Below, piece after piece: positions 5,769 to 59,342 of a stretch of DNA of 64,000 nt. Numbering within the stretch: position 1 is the first letter of the stretch; every line of letters starts with the position of its first letter. The position numbers and the translations under genes were made by a program. This DNA comes from Fragilariopsis cylindrus CCMP1102 (Eukaryota > Bacillariophyta > Bacillariophyceae > Bacillariales > Bacillariaceae): assembly GCA_900095095.1 (NCBI GenBank), contig FMBT01000398.1:82599-146598 (forward strand). Reading direction: 5' to 3'. A model generated the notes under the pieces. The model was not told the DNA's origin. It saw only the letters and a program-made list of their open reading frames with translations, and made no database searches.

Positions 5769-6454
5769 AAAGTGTATTTCGTTGCGGGTGATTAAATCAG
5801 TAGATAGCGATTCGGTGTATGCGTGTATACATATTACCTATCGTCTCAACTAATAGTCGACAACTTGAAATAAAATTCATTAGCCACAAGGATTCTACTG
5901 AACTCTTGATATTGATATTATTATAATACGATCAATACGTTTTAGCTGCCAAGATTGATTAACAATGAGAGAAGAAAGCAGTATCTTATCAGGAATTTTC
6001 TACAGGGAGATAGACGAACAACAACAACATAATGAAAAACCTGAACTTATTAAAGATAATTAGTAACAAGAGGAAGGGATATATACAGACAACAAATAGA
6101 AATAACAACGTACACTATATAATTAAAGCAATATTTTTTACGATATATAAAACATTATATGTTTGGTTTTAATAGTTCCCACTTGTTGTATTTTATTACT
6201 ATACACTACTGCTTATAATTTCTATCTATCAAATACTCAACAACACTCATAGACACCACACACACGAATTGATTTCTGTTTTTGCTTCCCTCTTCTTTAC
6301 TAGTATTTCCCCTTTCCATTCCTATTTCCATATCTCTTTAGATTTGCACACCTACGTTAGGGTCATTTTTTAAAGGTGGATTGTGCGAATTATCAAATAT
6401 TTATGTTATTATTATATGAACGCGACTTCGCTGATATGACGAAAGGCCTAAGTA
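5769..6454. other. spacer between the RGG gene and the viral block
   Basis: AT-rich and without a coding signal. It includes the left copy of the flanking direct repeat (6,251-6,342). Codon-like viral sequence starts somewhere between 6,345 and 6,500. Confidence 0.5.
6251..6342. repeat. left copy of direct repeat flanking the viral block
   Basis: The segment from 'agacaccacacacac' through 'tttttgcttccctcttcttt' and 'tttcccctttccatt' to 'tctctttagat' matches 19,588-19,719 in the same orientation. The right copy has about 40 extra bases in the middle ('cttccttccttcc...'). The right copy borders the AP2 gene stop codon, so it is probably that gene's 3' untranslated region. Confidence 0.7.
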
Positions 6455-6508
6455 GTGATGCACTATCATATTTTATATGGAATCTATCTAGGTACTGGTT
6501 TCTTCATC

Positions 6509-6700
6509 ATGAACTACAACGTAGTTACAGAAGACACTACGATAGATACACCTGATGTTGCTCGTGATGCAGCTAATGTAGGTGGTAATCCCATGGCTGG
6601 ACGTGTTAGTATCCGTCTAGTCGGTCCTAGAGTCATTCGTACCGCTGATGGTTTCTCTCGTATCACTCTAGGTAAGAAGAGGGAGACTGCCAGAATCTAA
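6509..6700 (+). CDS. small hypothetical protein of the viral block
   Basis: 63 codons from the ATG at 6,509; the frame is open further upstream to about 6,455. It has an acidic, Thr-rich start and a basic C-terminus ('DGFSRITLGKKRETARI'). No family is recognised. It may be the remaining end of a longer viral gene. Confidence 0.35.
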   Translation: MNYNVVTEDTTIDTPDVARDAANVGGNPMAGRVSIRLVGPRVIRTADGFSRITLGKKRETARI

Positions 6701-6775
6701 TCATTCTATATTCTTACATCACACTAACATATTCAATTACAATGCACCTATCAGATCATGTCATGTACTCGGTAC

Positions 6776-8215
6776 TCACTCTATGATATTCAGTGCGTAT
6801 GCTATATTGCCTGAGAACAGGGTATGGAGTACAGTCGTTACTGTCATCGGTGGTTTCATATCGTAACAAGCTCTGATCCTTATCGCAGCAGTATTGAGTC
6901 CACGTAGAGAATATTCATCAGTTGGTACTGTGCTCAATGATGCGTTGGTACGTTCTCTTATACTTGGTAGTACGACTAACCTTCTAGTAACATTAGGTCT
7001 AGTATACGATGACATCATATCGTATTCAGGAAGTATGTTAGCGTACATGATTAGTATAGTACTTCCATTACCTACTTCTCTCTCATCGCCTCCTGTGCAC
7101 TCTTTGGTAGACTGCATATGTTTTCATCTCTAGGCCTTTTTATCTCTAAGTCTCCAGATACAGCAAGTCTCACTGATAAGATCCTAGATAGGTCCCTAAG
7201 AGATATGGTATTGCCATAATGTCTCGTCGCATCATGTGTATCGACAATATACTGTACTGGTACAGAAACCACATCAGGCGATGCTGCTGCCCTTATGATA
7301 CTCCCCACTTTGCTCTTCCCTGTATTGCTTGGACCATACGCAAATAACCATGCTCTTTTGTCTCCAAAGTCAGCTACTATGTCGCCTATGATCCATAACA
7401 CAGTGATCCAATTACCTCCGAATGAATTATATATCCATTCAACAGCTGGTCCGAGACTATGGGGATCTAGTCTATGGAATAGGGATATGCTCTAATGCGG
7501 GCTCCATATGCCAGTAGGTACACAACAGAACGTACCTTTCGTATGGGATGCATTATATAAGTTAGATCCAGAAAGTGATGCGCATGGTACCAACGCTATG
7601 TGACCCGCTATGATATCTAAATGCATACCTAACGTTGCCTTGTGTGAATGTGTTACCAACGGATACTACTGGTATCTTTATGGATGTTGACATGTATTCA
7701 ACGTACGGAGCAGCTACAATACCGAAGCTTACAGGTGCATACAGACAACACAGAGTGCTTAAGTTCTTCTGTCCCATACTTGAAGTCATTCGAGCCCATC
7801 CTCTAGACTCACCAACATTTATGTACTCCTCTTCTTTTATCCTAATGACAGCATCTTTACGTACTAGCTCATCTAGATCTATGTCTAAAGCACTGGTTAT
7901 CTTGCTATCGACATTGAAATAGTCTACATCGTACATCTCGTAAAATGAATCATTATCTTCGTTATCAATACTACCTATAGTAGACTCATAGAGATTATCA
8001 TAATCGGGTTGATTAGCTCCTCTTCCAGTGTTGTAACGGGCAATCTTACTGGCCGGTTTCGTATTTGATATAAGCGACATGTACGAATCAGAGTCATTCG
8101 TAACGGTGCTGGATCTAACGCTAACACCAGCTTCTGTTGGTATCCCCGATGTGCCTATCGAAATATTATTTACATCCAAGGGATTCTTCGTACCCATCGA
8201 GTAGATCGTACGCAT
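6776..8215 (-). pseudogene. D5-like superfamily 3 helicase, broken
   Basis: Three open segments follow one another on the minus strand. The middle one holds a Walker A loop 'YGPSNTGKS' (7,312-7,335), the SF3 form, in a context ('RAWLFAYGPSNTGKSKVGS') typical of viral replicative helicases. After a frame change near 7,100 come 'TKECTGGDE' (compare the D5 'iK.ltGGD' motif) and 'ILIMYANILPEYD' (motif C, with N and P conserved), then 'RRLVVLP'. Upstream, an in-frame TAG (7,492-7,494) and a frame change near 7,560 separate an N-terminal segment (8,215-7,562) of unclear function. About 480 codons remain. In intact viruses this enzyme unwinds DNA at the fork. The breaks make a functional product unlikely. 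Confidence 0.72.
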
Positions 8216-8466
8216 GGACCCTTATCTATCTAGCAGGCATACTTAGAGAAGTAGATAAACTAGTCATGATTATATGGGTTGATTACACAAATGGATCTCT
8301 ATCATGCAGGTTCCTTGGACGTGAAAATAACGATAACATCACTAACAACTCACTATTATACAAACTACCTAACATCTCGATGATGGGTGATGGGTGATAC
8401 ACTGTGTCATAATGAAGGTATTGCTGAATATGTGGTACAATTCCATGCATAGGATCAGGAAGTACA

Positions 8467-8874
8467 ATGAATACGAGACGGTATGCCATGTGTGGATATT
8501 GTGTAGGAAATACATTGTCTGTACCAGATGCATCCCCTGTTCTAATAGATAGGAAGCGTGATCATGTGCTAGCCTATGATCTCGAAGTCGAATATTATGG
8601 TCCTAAGATTTCTTCCTTACGAAATCCCATACTATGCTCTAGTCTAGTTTGTACCTGCGGATATATAGTTATTATATCCAGATCTGATGTTAGACTACCA
8701 AGTGTTACGTGCATCAGAGTATATGATAATGAGGAGATGTCAGAGACTATAATGCGATTGATATCCAGCCATAATCCTATATTCATAGTTGGTCATAACG
8801 TATATGACTTCGACAATGTTAAGATAGCTGTTAGTTTACCATCAGATAGTAAGTACAGAAGATACTTCAACTAA
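8467..8874 (+). pseudogene. family B DNA polymerase, 3'-5' exonuclease domain fragment
   Basis: A 135-codon ORF. 'VLAYDLEVEYY' fits Exo I (D38, E40) and 'GHNVYDFDNVKIA' fits Exo II (N111, D116), with the usual spacing of about 70 residues. Catalytic acids of both motifs are kept. The frame stops at 8,874, well before Exo III and the polymerase palm motifs, and I found no continuation beyond the transposon. The ORF at 8,137-8,397 in a different frame may be more of the N-terminal domain. Truncated, probably non-functional. Confidence 0.62.
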
Positions 8875-8948
8875 TCGTAAGGTCTTTTGTTGTCTTACAT
8901 AAAGGTTCTTCTTGTATTTTTTAGATACGCTAAGAACAGAGAGGGAAA

Positions 8949-9029
8949 CAAGACGACCCACACTTCTGTGCTTTACTCGCATTTGATCATTATTTTTGAC
9001 ATGCAGGTCTCGAATGTTAAAAAAGAAAT
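8949..9029 (+). repeat. direct repeat left of the transposon
   Basis: 'gacgacccacacttc' followed by 'actcgcatttg', 'attatttttgac' and 'tgcaggtctc'. The same modules in the same orientation, but with the first one moved to the other end, occur at 14,357-14,450 on the other side of the transposon. About 50 of 58 bases agree in the longer module. Confidence 0.7.
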
Positions 9030-9050
9030 TACATATATTTAACATTTATA

Positions 9051-9333
9051 TTGTAGTTTTCCTGAACATTGATAATAAGGATCGATACATATATATATAT
9101 TAAAAAAAAACTTTTTTACCAACTTTTTAAAAGTAGTATATTATGATCCAGTACTGTCTTCTTGTATAGGAAAAAAATAATTCAGTTTGGAAATTTTAGT
9201 TCCACATGTCTATTTTGTGAGTTCAAACTTGCATACCTTTTAAAATGACTCACTCATGAATGACTAGTGATTCAAAATTAACACGTAGTGTACGCGCTAA
9301 AATCAGAAATTAGTCATTTTGAAAAAAGATAGG
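9051..9333 (+). repeat. left terminal inverted repeat of the transposon
   Basis: Pairs with 14,026-14,317 in reverse complement from the tip 'ttgtagtt' through 'gaacattgataataagga', 'agtactgtcttcttgtatag', 'ccacatgtctattttgtgag' and 'aaaatcagaaattagtcatt' to 'aaaaaagataggc'. By eye roughly nine in ten bases agree, with small indels. Confidence 0.88.
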
Positions 9334-9458
9334 CTTTTCCAATGTTCTCTTCATCATATATATAAGACAACGAACGTTCAAAGGAACGAATGAAAGAACG
9401 AACCAACCCACCAATACAACACAATACAATACACAACAAGTGAAGGGACGACTAAATT

Positions 9459-9479
9459 GTAGAGAGAGAGAGAGAGAGG
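9459..9479. repeat. (GA)n run before the 796-codon ORF
   Basis: A short purine dinucleotide run just upstream of the ATG at 9,490; probably 5' leader. Confidence 0.7.
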
Positions 9480-9489
9480 AGAAGAAAAG

Positions 9490-11880
9490 ATGACGTCCCG
9501 GGAGTTAAAAGATCTGAATAAGTTTAATGATACCATGGGATATGGAAGTGCAAGCGGTGCAAGGAGGTCAGCCCGCACCAACAAGGACGAAGAAGCGAAA
9601 AGAGACAAAGGTAATGTCAATGACAACGAGATGGACATGTTTGATTACTGTCGAGATCTTGCTAATGAAGAAGAAGAAGATGAACAAATGATGGAAGAGA
9701 GAAGAGGCCGTCCAGTAGGTAAGAGTATTACTAAGAAAAGAACAGGATGCGAAAGTGATGTAAGTTATAACTCTAGAAGTAGTAAAGATACTGAAGATGA
9801 TGATGATGATCATGACAAGGATGAGGATTTCGTACCTGTGATAGTAGCATCATCAAAGAAGAAACAGAAGAGTCAACGCATTGATAGAAGCAGAATCAAG
9901 AAACCAAAAAAATGGGAGAATCCAGATGGACTTTCTAATTCACCAGTACCAGTTTCACTTCGTGTAGCATTTCTTCAATTGGACCGTAAATCATCCGATG
10001 TTGTTTATCCACAAGCTGGCAAAGCACACAAAAGGCATGATTATAAACCACCAGGTTTTAATTCTGCTTCACCATTTGAAGAATTAGAAAGACATCTGAA
10101 GGATCTTATTGGAAAAGATACAGATACTTATGATGTACTTGAACGGGATTTTGCTTTTATCTATTATGATCCTACATACGAATCTGTATCACCAGATCAT
10201 GATGGATCAATTAGTGATATGAAAAGTAGAGATACTGTATTGACTCCAATTACGGACATACATGAATTCAAAAAGGCATTAATTAGTTCCGGTTTAGTTT
10301 TAGATGTTGGTGATAATGATGATGAAACTATTGTAAGTACTGGTAGTGCTGATTCTGATAGTGTACCTTTACAATTATATCATCTGGATGTAGTTGTTAC
10401 GGTTAAGAAAGCAAAGACAACATCGGCAACTAGTCGCAGCCGGAAGGCAATCAAGAAGATTAAATTTAATGTTTTGAATCCCGTTATTAAAATAAAGGAG
10501 GAGAAAGAAAGTAAAAAATCTAAGAATGATAATACTAATAGTAGTAATAGCAGTGATGATGACGATGAAGATGCTGACGAAGATGATGACGATGAGGTTT
10601 ATACCTATGAAATTGATGGTGGAAAACAATCAATGGGGTCATTTGAATTAGACTATACAGATGTTGGTGACCATTTTTATGATCCTGTGAGAGCAGGTGC
10701 TGTTGCTATTTATAACAAAAAAGAAAACAAAAAAATGAAAAAAAGAATTGGAATGAAGTCACCTATATGTGTTCTTAATGATGGTCGTAAAAAAGTTTGT
10801 ATTGTATTGAGAAGTACAGATGAACTTATTGTTTATATTGATAAATGCAAGTTAAAACAAAAGAGAGTTAAGAAAGGTATATTAGAAATTGACATTTCTT
10901 TAGGTGAGAAATTACAAGACGATGAATATGCCCCACCCCTTCATTTCTTATCATCACAAACTAGCACTGGTACTGTTGGTACTAAGAGTATTAATTCACC
11001 ACAAGAAAGGACAAAATCAAAAGCATCGGATACAAAAAAGGCTGCTCTATTCAACGAGCAGCTTAAAGTGGATATCAAAACTATCTTTACTGCTTATTAT
11101 AAGTACTCTCCTGAATATAAAAAGAAATTATGTTCAGAGCACTATGATGTTCTGCTAAGAAGATACCGTAATTCACATACAGAGGTAAAGAAAATGATGA
11201 AAGAAGTACAACAAAATCAATTTGGTACACTAAACTGGATGAATGGATATCAAAGTTTAACAAGAGCTAATGTTCCTCCATTCAGCGATAATGTTGAGTA
11301 CAATTGGGATTGTGTTAATGATATGCCCAGTGGAAGACAAGAAGTTACAACACCACAACAACAAGGACTCTTGATACAACAACAGATGGTATCGACTGTA
11401 CAGTCATTGGTTCAAAGTAAAACTGATACGAACAAAGCGACAGCAATCAGAATCTTTCGTAAAGTGTTAGTAAATAATAATAGTAATAATAATGGTAATG
11501 GCAGTAGTGGTAATGGTAGTGGTGATAATGATGATGCAGTTGTAATTGAACAAGAGATCAGTGTTATTTTATCAACAACTGATTTAGATAAATGCACTAC
11601 TGGTAATGATGTATTGAAGGAAGCACATGCAGAGTCTCAAAAATTGCCTTCGTCTTCTGCTTTATTTCATTTTGATCAAAGTGATTTGGATTCTCTTAAA
11701 AGTAAAGATAAAGTTATTATATATAGATTTCGAGATCTTGATCCTCCATCTGAAAAATTTAAAGTAATGACAATTAAGGAGATTTTGAAAGGTCGTAATG
11801 AAACTGTAAACATTGAGATGGAACTTATCAATGTACATAAAGAATCAACACTAGTTGATGGTGGGGGTTTTATGTTTTAA
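9490..11880 (+). CDS. transposon accessory protein, unknown function (796 aa)
   Basis: Intact ORF of 796 residues starting shortly inside the left TIR. The N-terminus (1-150) is charged and disordered, with acidic runs (eight consecutive acidic or His residues in 'TEDDDDDHDKDED') and basic clusters ('KKKQKSQR', 'RIKKPKKWE') that could be nuclear localisation signals. Residues about 155-330 and 390-490 look folded. A second acidic Ser/Asp stretch lies around residue 350, and an Asn/Gly linker around 665-680. I recognise no nuclease, recombinase or helicase motif. Its position between the TIRs and its intact state suggest that it serves the element, perhaps binding DNA or chromatin (inference). 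It converges with the transposase gene and shares the spacer at 11,881-12,514. Confidence 0.8.
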   Translation: MTSRELKDLNKFNDTMGYGSASGARRSARTNKDEEAKRDKGNVNDNEMDMFDYCRDLANEEEEDEQMMEERRGRPVGKSITKKRTGCESDVSYNSRSSKDTEDDDDDHDKDEDFVPVIVASSKKKQKSQRIDRSRIKKPKKWENPDGLSNSPVPVSLRVAFLQLDRKSSDVVYPQAGKAHKRHDYKPPGFNSASPFEELERHLKDLIGKDTDTYDVLERDFAFIYYDPTYESVSPDHDGSISDMKSRDTVLTPITDIHEFKKALISSGLVLDVGDNDDETIVSTGSADSDSVPLQLYHLDVVVTVKKAKTTSATSRSRKAIKKIKFNVLNPVIKIKEEKESKKSKNDNTNSSNSSDDDDEDADEDDDDEVYTYEIDGGKQSMGSFELDYTDVGDHFYDPVRAGAVAIYNKKENKKMKKRIGMKSPICVLNDGRKKVCIVLRSTDELIVYIDKCKLKQKRVKKGILEIDISLGEKLQDDEYAPPLHFLSSQTSTGTVGTKSINSPQERTKSKASDTKKAALFNEQLKVDIKTIFTAYYKYSPEYKKKLCSEHYDVLLRRYRNSHTEVKKMMKEVQQNQFGTLNWMNGYQSLTRANVPPFSDNVEYNWDCVNDMPSGRQEVTTPQQQGLLIQQQMVSTVQSLVQSKTDTNKATAIRIFRKVLVNNNSNNNGNGSSGNGSGDNDDAVVIEQEISVILSTTDLDKCTTGNDVLKEAHAESQKLPSSSALFHFDQSDLDSLKSKDKVIIYRFRDLDPPSEKFKVMTIKEILKGRNETVNIEMELINVHKESTLVDGGGFMF

Positions 11881-12514
11881 ATATAGTAACTTTTCGCAAA
11901 TATTTAACAATAAAGAGATCCTGGATATTTTGGTTATACAGGCAGAAACACTAGTAAAACAACTAGGAAAAGTACCTGGGGATTGAACACTGGACAGTTT
12001 TTTCAATAAAGAGATCCTGGATATTACAACTACATTACATTTCACAGTACACAGTACACCGTACACCGTACACAGTACACCGTACACAGTACACAGTACA
12101 TTTATTTCACATTACATTTATTCCACAGTACACAGTACACCGTACACAGTACACAGTACACCGTACACAGTACACAGTACACCGTACACAGTACACCGTA
12201 CACCGTACACAGTACACATTACATTTATTTCACATTACATTTATTTCACAGTACACAGTACACAGTACATTTATTTCACATTACATTTATTTCACAGTAC
12301 ACAGTACACCGTACACAGTACACATTAGGACCTATATATAGTAGTACTACTACTATCATTACGACTAGTTGTACTATCATTACTACTACTACTAGTTGTA
12401 CTATCATTACTAGTACTACTAGTAGTATATTATATATAGTAGTACTTCTACTAGTTGTACTATCATTACTAGTACATCATTCTATAGATAATGTACGATA
12501 TTAAACCTACTACT
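11881..12514. repeat. minisatellite-rich spacer of the transposon
   Basis: 'aataaagagatcctggatat' occurs twice (11,908 and 12,004). From about 12,030 to 12,325 there is an irregular array of 'cacagtacac' and 'cgtacac' with 'atttatttcacattac' inserts; from 12,340 to 12,475 an array of 'tactactactagttgtac' and 'tatcattac'. This is where the two convergent transcripts would end. Confidence 0.85.
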
Positions 12515-13735
12515 CTATAACGTAACTGCAAGTGCAACAACAACAGCAGTCATTGTAGATGTCATAATAGTATAATTGCTATCCATTTCCATTTCCATTT
12601 GTTCGACTACTTTAATAGATGGGAAATTTTGTGAATGTGGTACTAGGCTCTTCTTGAAGAAAGATCGTGCTATATCAGGAGTTACACTACACAATGCAAT
12701 ATCATGTGCAACATCCCATGGTTCATCATGGTGTCTCTTTAATTGCTTCTTGTAATGTCCAAACATAAGTTCAATAGGATTAAATTGTGGTGAATAAGCT
12801 GGCAGTTTAATTAAAATTGCACCCTTACTATTAATAAGTTCTTCAACATCAGGATGACCATGGATTGTAGCATTGTCCATTACAACTATACTTCTAGGCT
12901 CACCTAAACTATAATTACCTAGACCCGGCAATAAACCTGTACGCAACCAATCAACGAATCTATCACCGTCAATTGTACCATGAGAAGCATCTTTATCACT
13001 AGAGGAAGATTTTTGTTGCACTGTTTCACATGCTTCCCATATAAAACCATTCCAATCACAAGCAGCTAGTAAAGTGTATCTTTTTGCTTTATGTCCAGCA
13101 AAATAGGCATCACGAAATGGTGATAGACCTCTAATAAACCAATGGCGACGACGACGACTTGAATTTCTATCTTTTTGACTTTCATCAATGAATACAAGCT
13201 CACTAGGATGGAGACAATATTCTTCTAACTCCTCAAGATACTCCTTCTGCTTTTGTTCATCAGCATCGTATGTTCTATCTGCTACAACTTGAAGTGAATA
13301 ACCAACATCCCCGATTAATCTGGTCCACAGATAACTAGTAGACCAATCATCCTGCATCTGTAAACAAAAAGTTAATTGAATTTCATCTAAATAGAATTCA
13401 GGATGATCATCAACAATCTCCTTTAAAGTAGCAGTGTGCTCATCAGTCCATCTTCCTCTATTAGTTCTTCTTGTGTATCTCCTTTTGTACCTTCTTACTT
13501 CTTTTCTATCCGCCATAGCAGGAGTGTCTCCATATCGTATGAAATGGTTCCACCATCTTCTAATTGTTAATGGCTTAGCCCTAGGATAAATCTTTTGTTG
13601 TGTTTCTAATATCGCCTGTTGTAGTCTTGTCCTATGACCTGATCCTTCATAAGATTCATAAACATCAGGACCTAATATATCACAAATATGCTCTATACAT
13701 TCTTGTTGAATTCGAATTCTATTGTGCATCACCAT
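12515..13735 (-). CDS. DD34E transposase, IS630/Tc1-mariner superfamily
   Basis: An intact 406-codon ORF. The N-terminal 150 residues are helix-rich and basic ('RRYKRRYTRRTNRGRW'), fitting a DNA-binding region. The catalytic core has D184 in 'ELVFIDESQKDRN', D287 in 'SIVVMDNATIHGHP' and E322 in 'LPAYSPQFNPIELMF'. There are 34 residues between the second Asp and the Glu, the IS630-like DD34E spacing. 'AYSPQFNPIE' is a family hallmark. All three metal ligands are present and the frame is unbroken, so the element may still be mobile or was until recently. The last 30 residues (Thr/Met/Val-rich) look like an added tail. It would cut at the TIR ends and join to TA. Confidence 0.92.
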   Translation of the reverse strand: MVMHNRIRIQQECIEHICDILGPDVYESYEGSGHRTRLQQAILETQQKIYPRAKPLTIRRWWNHFIRYGDTPAMADRKEVRRYKRRYTRRTNRGRWTDEHTATLKEIVDDHPEFYLDEIQLTFCLQMQDDWSTSYLWTRLIGDVGYSLQVVADRTYDADEQKQKEYLEELEEYCLHPSELVFIDESQKDRNSSRRRRHWFIRGLSPFRDAYFAGHKAKRYTLLAACDWNGFIWEACETVQQKSSSSDKDASHGTIDGDRFVDWLRTGLLPGLGNYSLGEPRSIVVMDNATIHGHPDVEELINSKGAILIKLPAYSPQFNPIELMFGHYKKQLKRHHDEPWDVAHDIALCSVTPDIARSFFKKSLVPHSQNFPSIKVVEQMEMEMDSNYTIMTSTMTAVVVALAVTL

Positions 13736-14025
13736 TGTATGTATTCATGTATTGACGACGTTGTACAATACGACAATGACGATACGACAATACGACGATC
13801 ACACTACGACAATACGACGATGACGGTACAATAATACCTGATGATAACAGAACAAGAAGAAGAAGGAATATTAACTATTGTATTGCTGTTGCTGTTGCTG
13901 TTGCTGTGTGCTGTTCACTTGTCGTCATTCGTTTGTACGTTCGTTCGTTTGTGTTATGTTCATTCGTTTCTTTGTTTGGGATCGTCGTTGTTGTTTTAAT
14001 GAAGACACTGTCAGAACATCCTTCT

Positions 14026-14317
14026 GCCTATCTTTTTTTGTCGCGCCAAAATGACTAATTTCTGATTTTAGTGCGTACTAGTACGTGTTAATTTTGAATC
14101 ATGAGTCATTCATGAGTGAAAAGGTATGTATGGGGAGGCATGTTTGAACTCACAAAATAGACATGTGGAACTAATTTTTCCAAACTCAATTATTTTTTTC
14201 CTATACAAGAAGACAGTACTGGACCATAATATACTACTTTTAAAAAGTTGGTGAAAAAGTTTTTTTTAAATATATATATGTATTGATCCTTATTATCAAT
14301 GTTCACGAGAACTACAA
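14026..14317 (-). repeat. right terminal inverted repeat of the transposon
   Basis: Reverse complement of 9,051-9,333, with two short insertions relative to the left copy (near 14,042 and 14,125). It ends '...gaactacaa' just before TA. Confidence 0.88.
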
Positions 14318-14356
14318 TACTGATTACAATTCACAGGTAGAAATTGTACTACAGTG

Positions 14357-14450
14357 CTCAACTCGCATTTGTTTATTATTTTTGACGTGCAGGTCTCAAA
14401 TATTAAAAAAGAAAAGAAAATGGACACGCGACGACCCACACTTCCGTCGT
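14357..14450 (+). repeat. direct repeat right of the transposon
   Basis: Counterpart of 8,949-9,029: 'actcgcatttg...attatttttgac.tgcaggtctc' followed by 'gacgacccacacttc'. The order of the two modules is reversed relative to the left side while the orientation is the same. This suggests a small tandem array or rearranged intergenic region of the viral block, not a simple target duplication. Confidence 0.65.
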
Positions 14451-14518
14451 CAACATAGGATTTTTAAATACGTTAAGTCTTTTATATTCAGATACAGCAG
14501 ATATTTTGATCAACAAAA

Positions 14519-15237
14519 ATGAACAGTGCAGATGCTAGCTACGATCATGGTGCGAGTTATGGTACAAATCACGAAATGATCGTATACGATGATATAGACC
14601 GTGACACCATGAGATCTAAGATCAAGGCTAGTGAAAAGACACTGGTCAAGGCTTATATATCGTACAGCATCTATGACTCCATATCCAATGTAGTTCAGGA
14701 AATAACACGATACAATGTGCCCGATCCTGTACCAGTGCTGCCTAAACAGGATGTGGAGACATACTCGACCAAATATTCACGTTCTATTGTGTGCAGATAT
14801 GGATGTATGCAGAAGTCTTGCTGACACGTTCTTCACTCATAGACTGTGTGAATGTCGTCGTACTATGTTGTTTAGCATGTTTTCTGAATTACAGCATGAC
14901 TACGATGATTTCGCATTCATGGGTTCGAATGTCATTTTTGATAGTATGCTGGCACTATGCGAGCATATTCTATTGCTAGTCAAATACATAGATATATAGA
15001 ATAATAGCCACACTCGAAAGTGAAACTAACTATGATATATACACCATCATAGCTACAGTTTCCGGCAGAACATCTTCATATGCGAGAGTATCTAGCAACA
15101 TAAATAGGAAGCACAAGTACCAGGAGTTAGATTCTGATAAGTATGATGATGACTTAACACGTCGTAATATCACTGGACCTGGTCATGGTCAGGAGTTTAG
15201 TGCAGATAAAAATTACTACATCAATATAGTAAGTTAG
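14519..15237 (+). pseudogene. unidentified viral gene, frameshifted
   Basis: It starts at an ATG after an AT-rich stretch ('gatcaacaaaaatg'). It runs in three successive frames: 14,519-14,824 ('MNSADASYDHGASYG'), then from about 14,800 to 14,999 ('LADTFFTHRLCECRR'), then 15,004-15,237 ('ETNYDIYTIIATVSGR'). The joined product would be about 235 residues. No family is recognised. It is not a continuation of the DNA polymerase. Confidence 0.5.
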
Positions 15238-15291
15238 TGATGCGAGACTTATGTGACGCACTCAATATACATAACATAAAAGAGATAACGT

Positions 15292-17030
15292 CTATGGTAC
15301 ATGATAGTCACATATGCCCTTAATCTTCGATGTATTAGACAGAAACAGAAACTCTATCAGTGCAGTGGGATGCACTGGAAGATCCATGTTCATATCTCTG
15401 GACGTGTTATAGTAACAACTATTCATGTAGCATAGTGGTCTCATCCATGGATGCATAGACCTATCTAAGATATCACTGCATAGTCCATTATCATAACCAG
15501 ACAAATGTGTAGACATCACCATCACGAGATGTATTAGAGCGTCTACTTCAGCAGGATCGAAGGCTTCTCTAGATTCCCCTACCATCATACATACCGCATT
15601 AGTAGCTATTAGCTTCGTATAGATACTATCGGCAATAAGCGATATGTGATGTAGATTTGACGTTGCTATTATGGGCTCTCCATACCTTGTATCACATCTA
15701 GCTTTGATCGCATTGCAAGATTGAGTTATGCAGGTCCATTCATCACCACCGCATAACAGAGACAGTGTAGGAGATGCTTGGTCACCGGAGTTACTAGACT
15801 TGACCTTTAGTGTTATCTGCATTATGGATGCTGCGATCTTGGATACTGCTCTAATAGATGGGCTTCCGAACATCATGCTATTATCTCTTATGTTACTATG
15901 CTGCAGATCATGTAATGGCTGTATGCCATCGAGCCTAACATTATGATAGCGCTTATTGTGACCTAACACTACATGTTCTGCACATAGCTTTGTCTTTCTT
16001 GATAGACTACCTCTCTGTAGAGATGACTTAGATGATGCTATCTTCATGCACTTCATTCACTTACAACAGAAATCCCATGCACTCGCATATGGAATTCTAT
16101 ATGTTATCATCTGATCTCTCGATATAGATAAGAACTTATGAGCTGCTACCGGAACTACCTTATCATCTCCGTCTTTCCAACACACAGTTCTGCTTATGCT
16201 CATAGTGTTGAAAGGAGATTTTATAGTTGCTTGATGAGAGGGAACTACGGATTCCATGCATTGTAACATGTCCAACTGTCCCACTTTGTGATCCCATTTA
16301 TATGCATCACATTCCAGTATCGACTAAGTATTTTTGACAGGGTATATGGACATTTTGTCACCATTGAAATCAGCTGCGTACGCATGACATAGTGCCAGAG
16401 GTAACTTGATAGTTCTGTTAATGTCTACATGCCTATCTCCCATATTCACTATACCTGGCTTCGTAGACTTTATCTTGATTGGTTGTATACTTCCTGTCCA
16501 CAGTACAGGTTGTCTGACTAGTAGGCAACTATCGCCATCAGCTACGGTTGTGGTGTACTATTCAGTATGATCCCGGGTATCATGATCCAGCAGACATGAC
16601 CATCTTAATAGTACCATCAACACAACATGTGTTCATTGTTCTGATAGCTCCTTTCTTTCCCATCATGTAAACAGCTACTGAAGATGTATATCTATCTCGT
16701 GATTTGTGCCTGCCAACAGCCACTTTACACATACTGTATTTGCTCCTTCTATCGGGCATATCGGGTGTCATGGTACATGGAAGTAGATAGGTATCTTGCT
16801 TAGTCACTGGATTGGGTTCTTTCTCGATATGACCAAGGCATCCGATGCCATGTATAGGGTATTTCCACTTCGTCTCCGTGAAAGCAGATCGAATTAGTTT
16901 CTACGTTTGAACATCTATACTGCAGCAACATATACCTTGATATCGTACATACCGAATCTGCCTGAGCTCCTGGATACATATAACTTCTATATGGATTTGA
17001 ACCAATAGTATCTTCACCTGTCGACTTCAT
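15292..17030 (-). pseudogene. DNA-directed RNA polymerase largest subunit (RPB1/beta'-like), degraded
   Basis: RPB1 landmarks appear in order on the minus strand. 'GCLGHIEKEPNPV' (about 16,800-16,850) matches the C.GH.G.I.L..PV zinc region. 'MGKKGAIR' and 'CVDGTIKMVMSAGS' match the KG..G..R and RVDFSARTVI motifs. 'VRQPVLWTGS' matches NRQPSLH..S. 'YAADFNGDKMS' matches the active-site NADFDGDxM. The middle catalytic Asp is Asn (16,363-16,365). Between the RVDFSART-like and NRQP-like motifs only about 30 residues remain instead of roughly 100 or more, and the frame changes there. In-frame TAG (16,324-16,326) and TGA (16,057-16,059) interrupt the rest. The 254-codon tail (16,056-15,292) is open but I could not assign its motifs. 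It cannot make an active polymerase. Confidence 0.8.
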
Positions 17031-17047
17031 ACTACTGTGCTATAAAT

Positions 17048-17771
17048 ATGGACAACGATACGAATCACAGACGATCATGCAATGATGTTATATGTGAATT
17101 CGGGTCCTTGGCTCTAACATATCCAGCAGCTGATAATATCTTGGCATATCTCAAGTGTTGCAGGCATTATCCCATAAAATGTGTTGTGATGGGTAAGGTT
17201 CCGTACTCATCTGACATAGTACCTACGTTAGGCTCATCCTTCTCATAGACTAGCAAATCTAAAGATACACCAACGTCCTCGATGTTCTCATTACACATTG
17301 ACGATAATGCCGCTGCACTATCTATAATCAGAGACTCGTGGTCAGTGCTTCCTAATGGATACATGTTCGCCAATGCTGACTTCATGCCATCAGAGATGGG
17401 TGGCGGAGACAATAACATAGACTGTATACTCAGAAGTGATAGAATGTCAGAATTGATGGTGTCCATACTAAGACATGAGGAAGAATCACAGCCTGTCATC
17501 TTGATAGCTGTAGGGAAAATTGGCTTTATACTCATGTACATTGATAGCCAAGAGACTGAAAGCCTTAGGGCAGAGAGTGATAGTCCGTAGTTGCAAACAA
17601 CCAGCTTCGTTGGCTACCCTCACATCAAATAAGCATATGATAGGGAAGAACGAAAAGTACTCATTTGCAAGTGGTGAGTGCATGAGGACATTCAAGCGCA
17701 TTGTATCGTCGTATACCCAATGGGAGCGTAGATCAGTTCGACATATAATTTGTTCTATATTGATACACAAG
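17048..17771 (+). pseudogene. uracil-DNA glycosylase-like protein, degraded
   Basis: 'IKCVVMGKVPYSSD...GSSFS' (about 17,173-17,245) follows the UDG pattern 'vvilGqDPYp...GlaFs', with the catalytic Asp replaced by Val. Then comes an in-frame TAG (17,246-17,248). The same frame goes on to 17,590 through a region fitting the central 'vlllN' strand and 'PVILIAVGKIG' (compare 'vFllWG'). A shift to the next frame near 17,550 gives 'RVIVRSCKQPASLATL', in the place of the HPSPLS loop but without its His. Large DNA viruses use UDG for repair or as a polymerase cofactor. Both active-site loops are altered, so it is a relic or a non-catalytic homologue. The assignment rests on motif order only. Confidence 0.5.
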
Positions 17772-18309
17772 ATGAGTAAGAATACCATGCCTAGGCAGAC
17801 AAGACAAGCACTGATGGACATTCATACAGCCTCTTCGAGTAGTCATCGTGCAGTACAGCAAAGACTTAGAGACTGTGAGTCTACAGATAGTGTGGATAAG
17901 CTGAGAGATGCAGTATTGGCCATGGGCAAGGAGCTACTCTCTGCACTCTCTGTGAACAAAGACATGGAAACTTTATTGATGGCAGATTCTTATGAGTAAA
18001 ACTCGCTTCTGGATGCAGCAGCTGCTCCGGTACCTTCAGCCACGAAGTCGCAGAGGGACAACAACACTACAGTGACTGGACTTCCTGCTCATGGTACCGC
18101 AGTAGCTAAATCCGCAGCGAGTTCATCTACTTTCACTTCATCATCTTTGGTATCTAAGAACACTATGTTCTCTAGAAGTAGCAAGAAGAAAAAGGAACCA
18201 ACACAAACAATCACTCCAGCAACGTCCCACAGCATTATTTGGATCTACAGCTAAGATGAAGAACAGTAACAACCTTGCTAGTACCGTATATCCTCCAGAT
18301 AAGAAATGA
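17772..18309 (+). pseudogene. unidentified viral protein, Ser/Lys-rich tail
   Basis: ATG at 17,772 ('MSKNTMPRQTRQALMDI'). It is interrupted by an in-frame TAA at 17,997-17,999, continues in the same frame to about 18,230 ('SKNTMFSRSSKKKKEP'), then shifts frame and ends at TGA 18,307-18,309 ('NLASTVYPPDKK'). It could be the C-terminal extension of the UDG-like gene instead of a separate gene. No domain is recognised. Confidence 0.35.
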
Positions 18310-18426
18310 GTTTATTGTATCATTGTAGGCATATGTTTACTATCATCTTCTAGAAACTCCACATGGATATATTGGCTGATCCATGACCGACATATCTGAT
18401 ACTATCGACTTAAAATCTGATGATTA

Positions 18427-19239
18427 TTAATTATGATTTATAGTCGAACATACGTACCCAAAGTCATTCGTAAAACTCGATAGCTTACCTATCCACTGCA
18501 TACCCCCATGCTTACCTATCACCATGCATGATCCGTTAGTACGCAATTGCGTCTCTAAATGCTTTATGGACACACAATTGTCCCTATGCATATGACTATA
18601 CCTACATCGTTGGTTTGTAGATAAGTTACGACGCAGTAACCTGTTAATAACATTGATGTTAGCGCATAGTGGCTTAGTTGAGAGACTGCTACTCTTAATA
18701 TTCTCTATCGTAGTAAACTGTAGAGTTGATGATCCAAACGACACGGAACTGATCGATATTAGATCATCTGCATCTTGATAAGGCGGTAGCAGATATGCAG
18801 CACATCTTCCTGATACCACGAGATGTCTGTTCCTTCTATCAGCATCGATGGTATCGAATGAGGTATCCTTAGTTACATCAAATGGACATGATGTGATGGA
18901 TACCAAGTTTCTGATTGTTGACATGTCCGCATGAACGCTGATCCATGTATGATCTATTCTAACTTTGATCCAGTTTATGGTAGGCCTTACGGACCATATC
19001 GTCAACGTTGTATGACCCAATTTCAAACAAGAATATACTTTGATTCCTCTACACGATCTATGTGATGGATCTGTTCCATGAAAATATTCAGGTTGTAGAT
19101 GTACCATACCGTCTATCAGGCTATTCATCACACTATGCACACAATCAGGAAGTATGCATGGGTTGTCATAAAAGACATGAGGAAATGTTGTTTGGTCATC
19201 ATATATTCTCAACTGGCGATACTGATCATTCCGTACCAT
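18427..19239 (-). CDS. unidentified viral ORF, 270 aa, unbroken
   Basis: The longest unbroken frame of the viral block, with an ATG start ('MVRNDQYRQLRIYDD'). The sequence is mixed and globular-looking, with Cys and His scattered through it ('LPDCVHSV', 'QRCRYSHMHRDNC'), and no membrane segment. I recognise no family. Its survival over 813 bases while its neighbours are broken may be chance or recent use. The opposite strand also has shorter frames here, so the strand is not certain. Confidence 0.45.
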   Translation of the reverse strand: MVRNDQYRQLRIYDDQTTFPHVFYDNPCILPDCVHSVMNSLIDGMVHLQPEYFHGTDPSHRSCRGIKVYSCLKLGHTTLTIWSVRPTINWIKVRIDHTWISVHADMSTIRNLVSITSCPFDVTKDTSFDTIDADRRNRHLVVSGRCAAYLLPPYQDADDLISISSVSFGSSTLQFTTIENIKSSSLSTKPLCANINVINRLLRRNLSTNQRCRYSHMHRDNCVSIKHLETQLRTNGSCMVIGKHGGMQWIGKLSSFTNDFGYVCSTINHN

Positions 19240-19423
19240 TACGTTACATACGACATCCCTGGCTTCAAGTATTCCATGTATAGGGCAGAAAGATGATCGT
19301 ATTGGTGAGACTCTAGAATTGACTAGGCAACTTATTGTGCGCCTACAGTTACAAGACTAATGATTTATATAAATAACAAAAAAAATTAATTTTATCAATA
19401 TCATCGTCACACAGATTACAACC

Positions 19424-19501
19424 ATGGAGAGTATGGTTTCCACCGGTGAATTATTCATAGAAGAAGACATCTTTTTCTTTTGGTTGAATCAGAGCCACTG
19501 A
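19424..19501 (+). other. 25-codon ORF at the right edge of the viral block
   Basis: 'MESMVSTGELFIEEDIFFFW' and five more codons, then TGA, after 'acagattacaacc', a good eukaryotic start context. Probably the truncated start of a gene cut by the insertion edge. The following bases (19,500-19,580) are a 'cattttcgcattcacattt' repeat. Confidence 0.25.
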
Positions 19502-19587
19502 ATTCGCATTCATTTTTGCATTCACATTTTCATTTTCGTATTCACATTTTTGCATTCATTTTCGCATTCTCATTTTTTCGCACACAC

Positions 19588-19719
19588 AGACACCAGACAC
19601 ACAGATTGATTTTTTTGTTTTTGCTTCCCTCTTCTTTCTTCCTTCCTTCCTTCATTCTTATTGACACATACGAGTTTCATATTTCCCTTTTCCATTTTTA
19701 TTTCTTTATCTCGTTAGAT
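19588..19719. repeat. right copy of direct repeat flanking the viral block (AP2 gene 3' flank)
   Basis: Matches 6,251-6,342 (see that entry). It ends over the stop codon of the AP2 gene on the minus strand, so it is probably the gene's own 3' sequence, while the left copy is a displaced, shortened duplicate. Confidence 0.7.
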
Positions 19720-22494
19720 GTATTTCATTACGAAATCCTGATCATCACCACCTGTAGTAGTAGTAGCACTTGTACCACTGTTCCTACCAGCTGTTGATGT
19801 TGTTGCTACTGCTGATTCAACTTTTACATTATTGTTATCATCATCCTCGACTTCTTCTTCAGAATATTGTTCCTGTGGTGACTCATCATTATTGTTGTCA
19901 TCAGCATCATTATCACCACCAATAACAACATCACCAGAACCAGTACCATTCTTATTCTTCTTGTTTGTTGTTGGAAAGTTTAATACTTTATCTAGACCTT
20001 CAATAATTGGAATACCATCACCACTTTCAATACTATCATTATCTTTAATAAATTTTAATAAAAATTCATCATACGCAACTGCTGCTAAGATTTCAGTTTC
20101 ATAACAACCAATATAATAGGATTGGATTGTTGTATCATTTCCTTTTAATTTTTGTAATACTTTTTTATGACATATTTGTGCACGCCATGGTTTTTTACGT
20201 TTGCCATGATTACGCTTGTTTAATGATACACCACGATATTTACTTGATTGTGAATCTCTTTTTTTAATTTCGGACCATTTACCATCAAAAGTATTATTCA
20301 TTATCTGTGCACGTTTTGGTAGTAAACGATCAAACATATTTAATCCTGTACCTTTTGGTATACCTAATAGACGCAATCGTGCTGTTTTAGACAATGCTTT
20401 TGATGGTGGCATCTTACGACGTTTCTTTGCTGATGCTGATAATAATGCTGATTCAGGTGTAGAAGGCGTGGTGGTAGCTGCTGCTGATGCAGCGGCAGGT
20501 GTAGTAGTAGTAGTAGCAGATTCAGATTCAGATTTTGTTGCTGCAGAAGGTGTGGTAGCAGTAGTAGGAGCTGGTTTCGTAGCCATATTAGTATCATCAT
20601 CCTCATTCTCAAATTCAGTGTCATCTACTGAATCATCTGTTATCCCTAATACGATACATTCCACAAATGCTCTTTTATCATCAGTTGCACGTCCATTTGC
20701 CGTCTTTGTTTCACGAGCTTTTGCAATCATAATTTTCATTTGCTGTATCATATATTTCATTGTTTCATAATCAGGATCATTAGCTTGTGCTTGTGCTTGT
20801 GCTTGTGATAACGGCGCCGATGGTGTTGTAAAGGCTGCTGCTATTGGAGCTAGTAATGGTGTTGTTCGTGTTGCCATCATCATTGCTGCCATTTTTGCTG
20901 CTGATGGTGCTGGTGTTGTCATCATCGTTGTAATATTCACTGGTGTATTTGGTGGAGCACGTAATAGAACAGCTTCTGCAGGTGCTGCTGCTGCAGGTAC
21001 AGGTACAGGTACAACTATAGCTAGTAGTGGTGTATTAGACGACGCAGTTGATGTTGATGGTAGTGGTGTAGTACTACTACCTCCTGTAGTAGTACCACTA
21101 ATACCGGTAACTGAATTATATCCTTTGGATAATAAATTTTGTTGCATTGTGATTGTTTGTTGTTGTACATACCGGGCTGTTTGTACATCAGTTTTGGATT
21201 CCAACGCGAGTTGTTTTTTTAACGAGGCATAAAATGTGAGTTGTGACTTCGCATGATTCATAAAGACATCATTTAAGGCAATTCTGACATTACTATCTAA
21301 TTTTGCCATACAACTTCCTGATTGCATTTCTAGTAAAATAGATTGGGGTAGTAATGGTGAAGTATTTGTATTTGTTGTTGTATTTGAAACGGGTGTTGTT
21401 GCTACGCTTGTTGCGGATGATGACGCAGTAGTAGGAGTCTTCTTGGATGGTGTGTTCTTCACAGTAGCACTTGCCGTAACCGCCGCCGTTGTAGTAGAAG
21501 AAGCTGCCGCCGCTTCCTCTTCCTCATCTGGTGCTTTACCTTTAGTAGTATTCTTAGTTGCCTTCTTCTTCTTCTTCTTCTGATCGGATCCAGTAATAGC
21601 TATGTCTGTCGACGATGCGCTGGTAGTAGTACCCATCATGGTATCCTTACCATCCGGACTACTTGTGGATGGATCTGGATCTTTCCATTCGGATAGATTC
21701 TTTAATACACGTTGTTCTAAATCAACAATTGTTGATGATGATGACGAAACTTCCTTTTCATCTTCGACCTTATTAGCATCAGTATTAGTAATAGCTGCTA
21801 CTCCTTCTACTACTGCTGTTGCTGCTGTTACCTTCTTTAATGCTGCAGCAACATCATTGGTTGGTCCATCACCATCTTTGGTCCATGCTGCTAAATTATT
21901 TAAGACACGTGATTCTAAATCAGTTGTAGTATTCGTATTCGTTGTTGCTGCTGAAGTTGTAGTTGAAGCTGTTGCAGCCTCCGGTTGTTTTGATGATGCG
22001 TCAGAAGATAATCTTCGATCTTCAAATACAGCAACAGCAGCAGAAAAGTCAGAAGCTTCTGCTGTAGTAGTAGTAGTTGCGTTTGTGTTGTTTGTTGCAA
22101 TTGCTGCTGCTGCTGCTGCCGCCTTTGTGGACGTTGACGTGGACGTCTTCGATGATGCTGTGTTCTTCTTTAAAAAACCAGCAGATAATGGTTGTGGTGA
22201 TGGTGGTAATACTATTTGTACTTTTGCATTTGCAGTTGCAGTTGCAGTTGTATTTGTATTTGTATTTGTATTCGTTGTGGATGGCGGCGACGCTGCTGCT
22301 TCTTCCTTGGTTCGTTTCGCATGTTGGGATTGGGACGACGATTCTACTTTGACTCCACCTCCACCACAACTACGCAACGGCAATGATGGAACTTTTCTCT
22401 TTTTTGAATTTGAAGACGCAGCAGCAATTGCAGCAGTAGCAGCAGAACTATTATCATCCTGCTTTTTCTCAGAAGAAGTTGTAGAAGGATCCAT
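19714..22494 (-). CDS. AP2/ERF-domain protein with long low-complexity arms
   Basis: 926 codons with an ATG start. A single AP2-type DNA-binding domain lies at about residues 748-815: 'SKYRGVSLNKRNHGKRKKPW', 'RAQICHKK', 'YYIGCYETEILAAVAYDEFL'. YRGV, the W-R-A-Q-I strand and the AA.AYDE helix fit the family. The rest is Ala/Thr/Ser/Asn-rich, with acidic stretches after the domain ('EEEVEDDDNNN') that could activate transcription. 'LESRVLNNLAAW' and 'LEQRVLKNLSEW' occur as a repeated short motif in the N-terminal half (around residues 193 and 258). A helical segment near residues 395-455 ('ALNDVFMNHAKSQLTFYASL') may be an interaction domain. Likely a nuclear transcription regulator; AP2 proteins with one domain are known in diatoms. 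Its 3' end abuts the foreign block. Confidence 0.85.
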   Translation of the reverse strand: MDPSTTSSEKKQDDNSSAATAAIAAASSNSKKRKVPSLPLRSCGGGGVKVESSSQSQHAKRTKEEAAASPPSTTNTNTNTNTTATATANAKVQIVLPPSPQPLSAGFLKKNTASSKTSTSTSTKAAAAAAAIATNNTNATTTTTAEASDFSAAVAVFEDRRLSSDASSKQPEAATASTTTSAATTNTNTTTDLESRVLNNLAAWTKDGDGPTNDVAAALKKVTAATAVVEGVAAITNTDANKVEDEKEVSSSSSTIVDLEQRVLKNLSEWKDPDPSTSSPDGKDTMMGTTTSASSTDIAITGSDQKKKKKKATKNTTKGKAPDEEEEAAAASSTTTAAVTASATVKNTPSKKTPTTASSSATSVATTPVSNTTTNTNTSPLLPQSILLEMQSGSCMAKLDSNVRIALNDVFMNHAKSQLTFYASLKKQLALESKTDVQTARYVQQQTITMQQNLLSKGYNSVTGISGTTTGGSSTTPLPSTSTASSNTPLLAIVVPVPVPAAAAPAEAVLLRAPPNTPVNITTMMTTPAPSAAKMAAMMMATRTTPLLAPIAAAFTTPSAPLSQAQAQAQANDPDYETMKYMIQQMKIMIAKARETKTANGRATDDKRAFVECIVLGITDDSVDDTEFENEDDDTNMATKPAPTTATTPSAATKSESESATTTTTPAAASAAATTTPSTPESALLSASAKKRRKMPPSKALSKTARLRLLGIPKGTGLNMFDRLLPKRAQIMNNTFDGKWSEIKKRDSQSSKYRGVSLNKRNHGKRKKPWRAQICHKKVLQKLKGNDTTIQSYYIGCYETEILAAVAYDEFLLKFIKDNDSIESGDGIPIIEGLDKVLNFPTTNKKNKNGTGSGDVVIGGDNDADDNNNDESPQEQYSEEEVEDDDNNNVKVESAVATTSTAGRNSGTSATTTTGGDDQDFVMKYI

Positions 22495-23449: not shown

Positions 23450-23917
23450 AGAGGAGCCGCCGCCGGAGCATCACCTCCTGCAGGTGCAAGTGAAGATCGA
23501 TCTGGAGGAGCAACTCCATTGCACATGAGGAAGAAAACTAAAGTAGTTGGCCGAACTCTAAAATTTGGTTCTCCAGCACCCTGCAGCTGCGACTTCTGTC
23601 GGAACCCCCAACACCTGCACCTGTTGGTGATGTACCACCAACAGGTGCTGCGGGGGGTCCTCCACAAACCGTTTCGAATCCAGCACCCTGCTGTCGTAAC
23701 CCAAGCATCTTTTATATCTGGTGGTACACCAGCATCCTTTGGTGCTACTTCTATCGAAACCCCAGCACCTGCAGCTCCACCTCGAGCAGCAGGAGTCTTT
23801 TTTCCTCCAGCAACTGTAGTATTTGGTGATACACCAGCAACAGGTGCTGCGGAGGGTCATTTGAAAAAGTTTATAAGAAGATTTTTATGTGGGTGGGTCG
23901 AACGTTCGACTTATTGA
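23450..23917 (+). pseudogene. Pro/Ala/Gly/Thr-rich repeat frame, frameshifted
   Basis: On the plus strand the repeated phrase 'GD.P.TGAA.G' and 'PAPAA' recurs in more than one frame: 'PVGDVPPTGAAGGPP' near 23,620, then 'GGTPASFGATSIETPAP' and 'VFGDTPATGAAEG' up to 23,860. The repeats make it look like a decayed disordered, perhaps FG-type, protein exon. Neither start nor end can be fixed. Confidence 0.3.
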
Positions 23918-42650: not shown

Positions 42651-42651
42651 T

Positions 42652-59333: not shown

Positions 59334-59342
59334 CAAAAACAA

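What the first reader, a model, noticed from the sequence alone, without database searches (positions are those of the whole stretch)
6455..19365. Endogenous large-DNA-virus fossil in a diatom genome
Four broken genes of viral replication and transcription (SF3 helicase, polymerase B exonuclease, RNA polymerase largest subunit, UDG-like) lie together in about 7.6 kb of foreign-textured DNA split by a transposon. Known diatom viruses are small ssDNA or RNA viruses. A fragment with its own RNA polymerase would point to a nucleocytovirus or mirusvirus infecting, or once infecting, a diatom lineage.
Basis: partly seen in the sequence, partly recalled or inferred. Interest (0 to 1): 0.88.

Follow-up and report, generated by a model that had tools for sequence, protein, structure and literature searches.

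The report
Decayed large-DNA-virus fragment in diatom
A diatom chromosome carries about 7 kb of rotted genes that most likely came from a large DNA virus with its own RNA polymerase, a kind of virus rarely linked to diatoms, and close and distant relatives of its genes turn up in public sequence collections.

Summary
The observation largely holds. The host is a diatom (27 silicon-transporter matches). About 7.3 kb of foreign DNA (6439-8874, 14500-19359) is split by a multicopy DDE transposon (9049-14319). Both halves share a texture the host lacks: AA/TT observed/expected 0.65 against 0.98.

RNA polymerase largest subunit: good support (Pfam E 8.8e-9), many lesions, separate from host polymerase genes. 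SF3 helicase: fair, through relative P0009 (PHROG primase E 1.3e-4). PolB exonuclease: weak (E 0.0018); no palm domain found. "UDG-like": not supported; the right-end gene belongs to an unnamed family.

Best reading: an endogenised, decayed piece of a large DNA virus. Public proteins 92-98% identical share some lesions and lack others; relatives at 43-62% show a wider family. Seven of eight IMG/VR scans and one GTDB scan found no relative; the eighth gave only distant RNA polymerases.

Lineage stays open: nucleocytovirus, mirusvirus or other. Giant-virus-like insertion signals in Chaetoceros genomes are already in print (PMC10570341), so this is a well-dissected new member of a known kind.

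The parts
6351..6438 (.). host repeat that ends at the left junction
   Evidence: 91% and 87% copies about 50 kb upstream in the same contig, C714:48208-48293 and 48488-48557
6439..8874 (.). left half of the viral block
   Evidence: AA/TT observed/expected about 0.51-0.73 in the 500-base windows starting 6501-8501; dinucleotide table
6452..6697 (+). open stretch of 82 residues, family unknown
   Evidence: open frame; no Pfam family; codon-usage score ranks its frame first of six by a small margin
6779..7123 (-). SF3-type helicase, C-terminal piece (motif C-like stretch ANILPEYD, RRLVVLP)
   Evidence: 94.8% identical to P0009 residues 93-207; frame differs from the next piece
7075..7491 (-). 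SF3-type helicase, ATPase piece with Walker A GPSNTGKS
   Evidence: relatives P0007-P0010; P0009 hits PHROG DNA primase E 1.3e-4
7565..8221 (-). upstream 219-residue piece, possibly the N-terminal part of the same gene
   Evidence: open frame on the same strand next to the helicase; no family match; codon score ranks its frame first; assignment inferred
8428..8871 (+). PolB-type exonuclease piece (YDLEVEYY, HNVYDFDN)
   Evidence: PF03104 E 0.0018; phrog_262 DNA polymerase E 0.0084
8875..14500 (.). non-viral insert: transposon plus flanking repeat sequence
   Evidence: texture returns to host values; repeat copies on other contigs; 67-base direct repeat 8962-9028 / 14348-14414
9049..14319 (.). 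DDE transposon with terminal inverted repeats
   Evidence: inverted repeats 92-97% complementary; near full-length copy on C598 at 90-92%
12515..13744 (-). transposase of that transposon
   Evidence: PF13358 DDE_3 E 3.3e-19
14510..14821 (+). possible continuation of the PolB-type exonuclease (YSIYD, Exo III-like)
   Evidence: motif read by eye; no Pfam family; PHROG matches of unknown function only; frame ranks first in the codon score; inferred
14992..15234 (+). further + strand piece, family unknown
   Evidence: open frame; no Pfam family; frame ranks first in the codon score
15295..16056 (-). RNA polymerase largest-subunit gene, downstream piece (254 residues)
   Evidence: P0003 98%, P0004 96%, P0005 62%, P0006 58%; P0003 runs on into the next piece in one frame; by itself not recognised as polymerase
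16060..16323 (-). RNA polymerase largest-subunit gene, piece between two in-frame stops
   Evidence: same frame as both neighbours, stops at 16326 and 16059; last 48 residues match P0003
16327..16557 (-). RNA polymerase largest subunit, active-site piece (ADFNGD)
   Evidence: PF00623 E 8.8e-9; NCBIfam subunit A' E 3e-5; hhalign probability 94-95% to other polymerases
16583..17613 (-). upstream pieces of the same gene in three frames
   Evidence: frames and stops; no family match for 16583-16900 or 17170-17613 beyond noise; assignment by position, inferred; 17170-17613 ranks second in the codon score
17514..18251 (+). two in-frame + strand pieces, family unknown
   Evidence: open frames separated by one stop; only noise-level Pfam matches
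18349..19356 (-). gene of an unnamed family: 309-residue open frame (18430-19356), a double stop, then the tail
   Evidence: P0002 365 aa, residues 29-364 align at 42%; P0001 96%; tail match beyond the double stop beats 5000 of 5000 shuffles; missing its first 28 residues at the right junction
14500..19359 (.). right half of the viral block
   Evidence: same texture as the left half; DNA search of 14500-19400 finds only itself in the genome

Best explanation
A fragment of a large double-stranded DNA virus that carried its own replication and transcription genes entered the nuclear genome of a diatom ancestor, decayed there by point mutations and frameshifts, and was later split by a host transposon that landed next to or in the PolB-type gene. 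It has no function that can be inferred. Shown here: diatom host, separate texture of both halves, broken polymerase gene apart from the host polymerase genes, nested host transposon, single copy in this assembly, relatives with shared lesions. Inferred: that the source was a virus rather than a plasmid, and that it entered during an infection by illegitimate joining.
For: Diatom: 27 PF03842 matches, best E 1.1e-226; the control rang in 1 of 14 genomes, below cut-off. Polymerase: PF00623 E 8.8e-9; four other contigs of the genome carry Rpb1 genes, two of them with identical matches, so three further genes. Helicase: P0009 to PHROG primases. Texture. Nested transposon. Copy number. Decay: six polymerase pieces in three frames, two in-frame stops inside 15294-16560, helicase pieces in two frames; double stop inside the right-end gene with the lost tail still recognisable. 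Shared history: P0007 and P0008 end in the same shifted helicase frame as the window; P0001 ends one codon past the window's first stop, at the place of the second.
Against: No capsid, packaging or other virion gene was found in the block. The helicase and PolB assignments rest on weak scores, and PolB lacks its palm. Seven of eight IMG/VR scans and one GTDB scan found no relative; the eighth gave only generic polymerases. PF04451, the nucleocytovirus capsid, has no match in the genome, but no control rang either. The ends of P0001, P0007 and P0008 could in principle be contig ends; their contigs were not available.
Confidence: 0.82

Rival explanations
1. Remnant of a linear cytoplasmic plasmid (virus-like element of the yeast killer-plasmid type), which also carries a PolB, an RNA polymerase and a helicase, rather than of a virus.
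For: PolB and a divergent RNA polymerase together would fit such plasmids (recalled); no virion gene is in the block.
Against: The helicase here looks SF3/D5-like, while killer plasmids carry another helicase type (recalled, not tested). No such plasmid from a diatom is known to me (recalled).
Confidence: 0.08
2. A transposed or decayed host gene set, for example a pseudogene of a nuclear RNA polymerase plus neighbours.
For: Diatom genomes hold three nuclear polymerase genes that could be copied; the active-site piece is 31-33% identical to two of them.
Against: The active-site piece differs from the host genes by a 13-residue insertion and a very long branch; texture is foreign on both sides; the neighbouring genes have no host copies.
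Confidence: 0.04
3. Assembly chimera or contamination from an associated organism or virus.
For: Reads were not available; sequence on this contig could in principle be misjoined.
Against: A transposon with copies on other contigs sits within the block; the viral part is decayed; public proteins 96-98% identical exist as clusters of 7 to 26 members.
Confidence: 0.04
4. Relic of a tailed-phage-like virus with a multisubunit RNA polymerase rather than of a eukaryotic virus lineage.
For: The active-site piece aligns about as well to the polymerases on L041 and L045 (hhalign 94.9%) as to the eukaryote-type ones (94.4%), and its length between the two conserved ends is nearer to theirs.
Against: Such phages infect bacteria (recalled); what L041 and L045 are was not tested; no other piece of the block matches their open frames.
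Confidence: 0.05

Closest known systems
Giant endogenous viral elements (nucleocytoviruses integrated in algal and protist genomes)
   Same: Decayed replication and transcription genes in a nuclear genome, with transposon invasion, as reported for Euglena gracilis (PMC12455990, abstract start seen in a search listing).
   Different: Only about 7.3 kb, no capsid or packaging gene, divergent polymerase, no close relative in the viral collection searched.
Giant-virus-like insertion signals in Chaetocerotales diatoms (PMC10570341)
   Same: Same host group at phylum level and the same general kind of evidence; sections 7 and 20 read.
   Different: Those are automated VirSorter2 and ViralRecall signals reported in summary; no gene-level dissection was seen in the sections read, and whether this locus is among them could not be checked.
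Endogenous fragment of a Chaetoceros tenuissimus ssDNA virus (PMC8613185)
   Same: Broken viral replication gene in a diatom chromosome with frameshifts and nonsense mutations (abstract and passages).
   Different: That one is a single Rep gene of a small ssDNA virus, attributed to retrotransposon-mediated insertion.
Mirusviruses
   Different: Defining HK97 capsid module not present here; the word diatom does not occur in the main text of either paper.

Membership tests
Giant endogenous viral element (large DNA virus origin) | Several virus-type replication or transcription genes side by side in a eukaryotic contig | tested here: met
   RNA polymerase E 8.8e-9, helicase through P0009 E 1.3e-4, PolB exonuclease weak, E 0.0018
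Giant endogenous viral element (large DNA virus origin) | Host sequence on both sides | tested here: met
   Host repeat ending at 6438 and host-textured sequence from about 19360; by assembly only, not by reads
Nucleocytoviricota | Double jelly-roll major capsid protein | tested here: inconclusive
   PF04451: 0 matches in the genome, but no control genome rang
Nucleocytoviricota | D5-type primase-helicase | tested here: inconclusive
   SF3-like ATPase piece; PHROG primase hits only through P0009; no Pfam D5 family
Nucleocytoviricota | RNA polymerase largest subunit branching with nucleocytoviruses | tested here: inconclusive
   77-residue piece, nine-row tree, long branch, no supported small set
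Mirusviricota | HK97-fold capsid, terminase and portal genes | not tested
   None seen in the block; no profile was on hand and the rest of the genome was not searched for them
Killer-plasmid type linear element | Protein-primed PolB with SF2-type helicase and fused RNA polymerase | not tested
   Features recalled; the PolB remnant has only an exonuclease-like part
Host nuclear RNA polymerase pseudogene | Close similarity to one of the host Rpb1 genes | tested here: not met
   31-33% identity over 77 residues to two host genes; no starred set joins it to them

The most novel reading that the evidence does not exclude
The block is the fossil of a still unrecognised lineage of large DNA viruses that infect diatoms. 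Its RNA polymerase has diverged so far that only the active-site piece is recognisable, it carries a conserved gene of no known family (right end), and living relatives, represented by P0002, P0005 and P0006 at 43-62% identity, persist in nature but are missing from the IMG/VR contigs searched.
Probability: 0.3. Interest if true: 0.8.

Novelty: new member of a known kind. Interest (0 to 1): 0.55.

Why it matters
Diatoms carry out a large share of marine primary production (about 40% in the passage of PMC8613185 seen), and the diatom virus isolates in the passages I saw are small ssDNA or RNA viruses (PMC6165237). A genome fragment with its own RNA polymerase inside a diatom chromosome is physical evidence, beyond co-occurrence, that large DNA viruses have entered diatom cells. 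The sequence families found here (P0002, P0003, P0006, P0009) are usable baits: they let others look for the capsid gene and for living relatives, which would settle what the virus is.

Tried and rejected
UDG-like gene: no uracil-glycosylase family was listed for any piece scanned.

TATA-binding protein for the right-end gene: suggested to me by eye. Not supported: no Pfam family for P0001 or P0002; hhalign against the host TBP, probability 0.1; AlphaFold model of P0002 with pLDDT 31.6 and pTM 0.27; structure search of that poor model gave 623 matches at E<=10, none at E<=0.001, and no TBP in the 50 rows shown. PDB sequence search with the family alignment gave only a Toll-like receptor at E 1.7.

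Finding relatives in IMG/VR: eight scans. Seven gave none. One search, made with an alignment that included two host polymerases, gave seven loci, 29-36% identical, which are generic RNA polymerases; no other piece of the block matches their open frames. One GTDB scan gave none. One tblastn of the active-site piece against phage records gave 5 records at E 0.4-0.6.

Recognising the 254-residue piece as polymerase by itself: hhalign probability 0.0 and 0.1, against 94.4 and 94.9 for the active-site piece as control. It is assigned by frame and by P0003, which joins it to the next piece.

More of the virus in the rest of the contig: 8 of 316 windows over 80 kb upstream fall below 0.78 in AA/TT, and no block piece matches there better than E 0.12.

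Codon-usage support: 15 of 24 stretches tested rank their own frame first, including all 7 training stretches scored with themselves left out; two ranks are near ties, and one antisense stretch (17249-17587) also ranks first, against my reading of 17170-17613.

Folding the polymerase piece: never ran; the machine was busy each time.
Full report
WHERE IT IS. The window is C714:82599-146598 of a 67.9 Mb assembly in 818 contigs. The genome gives 27 matches to the silicon-transporter family PF03842, the best at E 1.1e-226, so the host is a diatom; several matches come in pairs on two contigs with near-equal scores, which suggests haplotype duplicates. The species was not determined.

THE BLOCK AND ITS TEXTURE. 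From about 6439 to 8874 and from about 14500 to 19359 the dinucleotides AA/TT are strongly depleted. In 500-base windows the observed/expected ratio averages 0.65 in 26 windows inside and 0.98 in 220 outside; 8 of 254 windows at the edges were left out, 15 of 220 outside windows fall below 0.80 (among them the ones over the RGG-type repeat gene near 5251 and the tandem repeat near 12001), and the measure was picked after one search had shown it, so the formal p value of 9e-16 is optimistic. Tetranucleotide profiles agree: windows in the left half correlate 0.55-0.75 with the right half and about 0.28-0.33 with the host side.

THE TRANSPOSON. Between the halves lies a DDE transposon with terminal inverted repeats ending at 9049 and 14319 and a transposase (PF13358, E 3.3e-19). 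A DNA search of 5900-25800 in the genome gave 87 matches with 39 of 91 candidates scored; nearly all fall in the transposon and its flanking repeat, and the longest copy, on C598, is 90-92% identical over most of the element. No match of that search lies in the viral parts. Between the transposon and the viral sequence there are about 175-190 bases of other repeat sequence on each side, with a 67-base direct repeat (alignment score 89 against a maximum of 23 in 20 shuffles).

THE EDGES. On the left, a host repeat with two copies about 50 kb upstream in the same contig stops at 6438. On the right, homology of the last gene to P0002 runs to 19356 and its first 28 residues are missing; host texture starts there. 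T-rich host sequences at 6244-6326 and 19581-19662 resemble each other (score 78 against a maximum of 34 in 20 shuffles); whether that is a duplication made at insertion or chance between similar spacer sequences was not settled.

RNA POLYMERASE. The piece 16327-16557 (-) matches PF00623 at E 8.8e-9 and archaeal subunit A' at E 3e-5. Its active-site stretch reads ADFNGD where the host and viral polymerases fetched here read ADFDGD. The genome holds Rpb1 genes on four other contigs, two with identical matches, so three further genes, consistent with the three nuclear polymerases, though I did not assign them. The frame 15294-16560 is interrupted by two stops, at 16326 and 16059. Public protein P0003 (303 residues, 26 members, 98% identical) is open across the second of these and so shows that the 254-residue piece and the one before it are one gene. 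By itself the 254-residue piece is not recognised as polymerase. Upstream pieces lie in three frames and were assigned by position only. A tree of nine rows puts the active-site piece on a branch of 2.63 changes per column and in no supported small set, so the lineage is unresolved.

HELICASE. Pieces in two frames cover 8221 to 6779 (-). The ATPase piece carries GPSNTGKS, and the next piece ANILPEYD and RRLVVLP, which I read as Walker A, motif C and an arginine-bearing strand of SF3 helicases (motifs recalled). The pieces themselves hit no family, but P0009 (214 residues), which reads from one piece into the other, hits PHROG DNA primase families at E 1.3e-4 and 2.5e-3 over its ATPase part. 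In Pfam it shows only AAA_16 at E 0.2, and in the PDB nothing below E 0.038, a light-harvesting protein that is noise.

POLB. The + strand piece 8428-8871 matches the PolB exonuclease family at E 0.0018, below the curated cut-off, and a PHROG DNA polymerase at E 0.0084. A third exonuclease motif seems to follow on the other side of the transposon (14510-14821), by eye only. PF00136, the palm, has 9 matches in the genome and none in the window, so either the rest of the gene is gone or this was never a full PolB.

RIGHT-END GENE. The 309-residue open frame 18430-19356 (-) has two public relatives: P0001 (96%, 22 members) and P0002 (365 residues, 43% over the whole piece). P0002 continues past the double stop of the window, and the tail behind the stops still matches it: 0 of 5000 shuffles reach the score. 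So this gene is broken too. Family and fold are unknown after Pfam, PHROG, NCBIfam, PDB and structure searches.

RELATIVES AND SHARED LESIONS. Three protein searches returned 2, 4 and 4 proteins at E<=1, all on contigs of 627-3089 bases and from sources labelled ena and lgn; whether these are metagenomes was not shown, but it is likely. P0007 and P0008 end in the same shifted helicase frame as the window. P0001 ends one codon past the window's first stop, where the window has its second. P0003 and P0009 are open where the window is broken; P0010 ends in yet another frame. The simplest reading is that several copies or alleles descend from one old insertion, some with shared and some with private lesions, while P0002, P0005 and P0006 (43-62% identical) represent more distant kin. 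Contig ends could mimic some of these protein ends, and the contigs could not be fetched.

COPY NUMBER. DNA 14500-19400, the helicase piece, the right-end piece and P0009 each find only this locus in the assembly. In the 80 kb upstream in the contig no further piece was found.

WHAT IS IN PRINT. PMC10570341 (sections 7 and 20 read) reports that the diatom order Chaetocerotales had the largest number of giant-virus and virophage insertion signals among five predicted host taxa, and that C. muelleri and C. tenuissimus genomes show giant endogenous element-like signals. PMC12344493 (passages) found two genes of possible viral ancestry in Phaeodactylum. PMC8613185 (abstract and passages) describes an ssDNA-virus fragment in C. 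tenuissimus. PMC10148842 (passages) mentions mesomimiviruses co-occurring with diatoms. PMC5294986 (passages) lists nucleocytovirus markers in several stramenopile groups; no diatom genus appeared in the passages shown. No paper dissecting a large-DNA-virus insertion in a diatom gene by gene appeared in those searches; many papers are not in the library, and two surveys cited there as a preprint and in Current Biology could not be read.

VERDICT. A decayed fragment of a large DNA virus in a diatom is the best reading (0.82). The virus lineage cannot be named. It is a new member of a known kind with a real chance (0.3) of standing for an unrecognised virus lineage.

Noticed in passing
6244-6326 and 19581-19662: T-rich host sequences on the two sides of the block resemble each other (score 78 against at most 34 in 20 shuffles); possibly a duplicated host stretch flanking the insertion.
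   Followed up: partly
8875-9048 and 14320-14500: Other repeat sequence flanks the transposon inside the viral block, with copies elsewhere (for example C648 and C507 at 93-94%); the transposon may have landed in an older small insert.
   Followed up: partly
9463-11877 (+): Second long open frame (805 residues) inside the transposon with no Pfam family (PF04889 at E 0.35 only); the C598 copy covers this stretch too.
   Followed up: no
12029-12315: Tandem repeat of CACAGTACAC-like units open in all three + frames.
   Followed up: no
4344-5768 (+): Gene with tandem charged repeats followed by a glycine-arginine-rich tail; no Pfam family.
   Followed up: no
55863-63929 (-): Two neighbouring long open frames with helicase-associated (HA) domains, one with five of them.
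   Followed up: no
34919-36307 (-): Gene with two fasciclin-domain stretches (E 4.9e-14).
   Followed up: no
42651-42722 (-): tRNA-His, the only tRNA and the only Rfam match in the window.
   Followed up: no
L046:1-7272: An IMG/VR contig with an RNA polymerase largest subunit in a 2424-residue frame that is open over the start of the locus, unusually long for this subunit.
   Followed up: no
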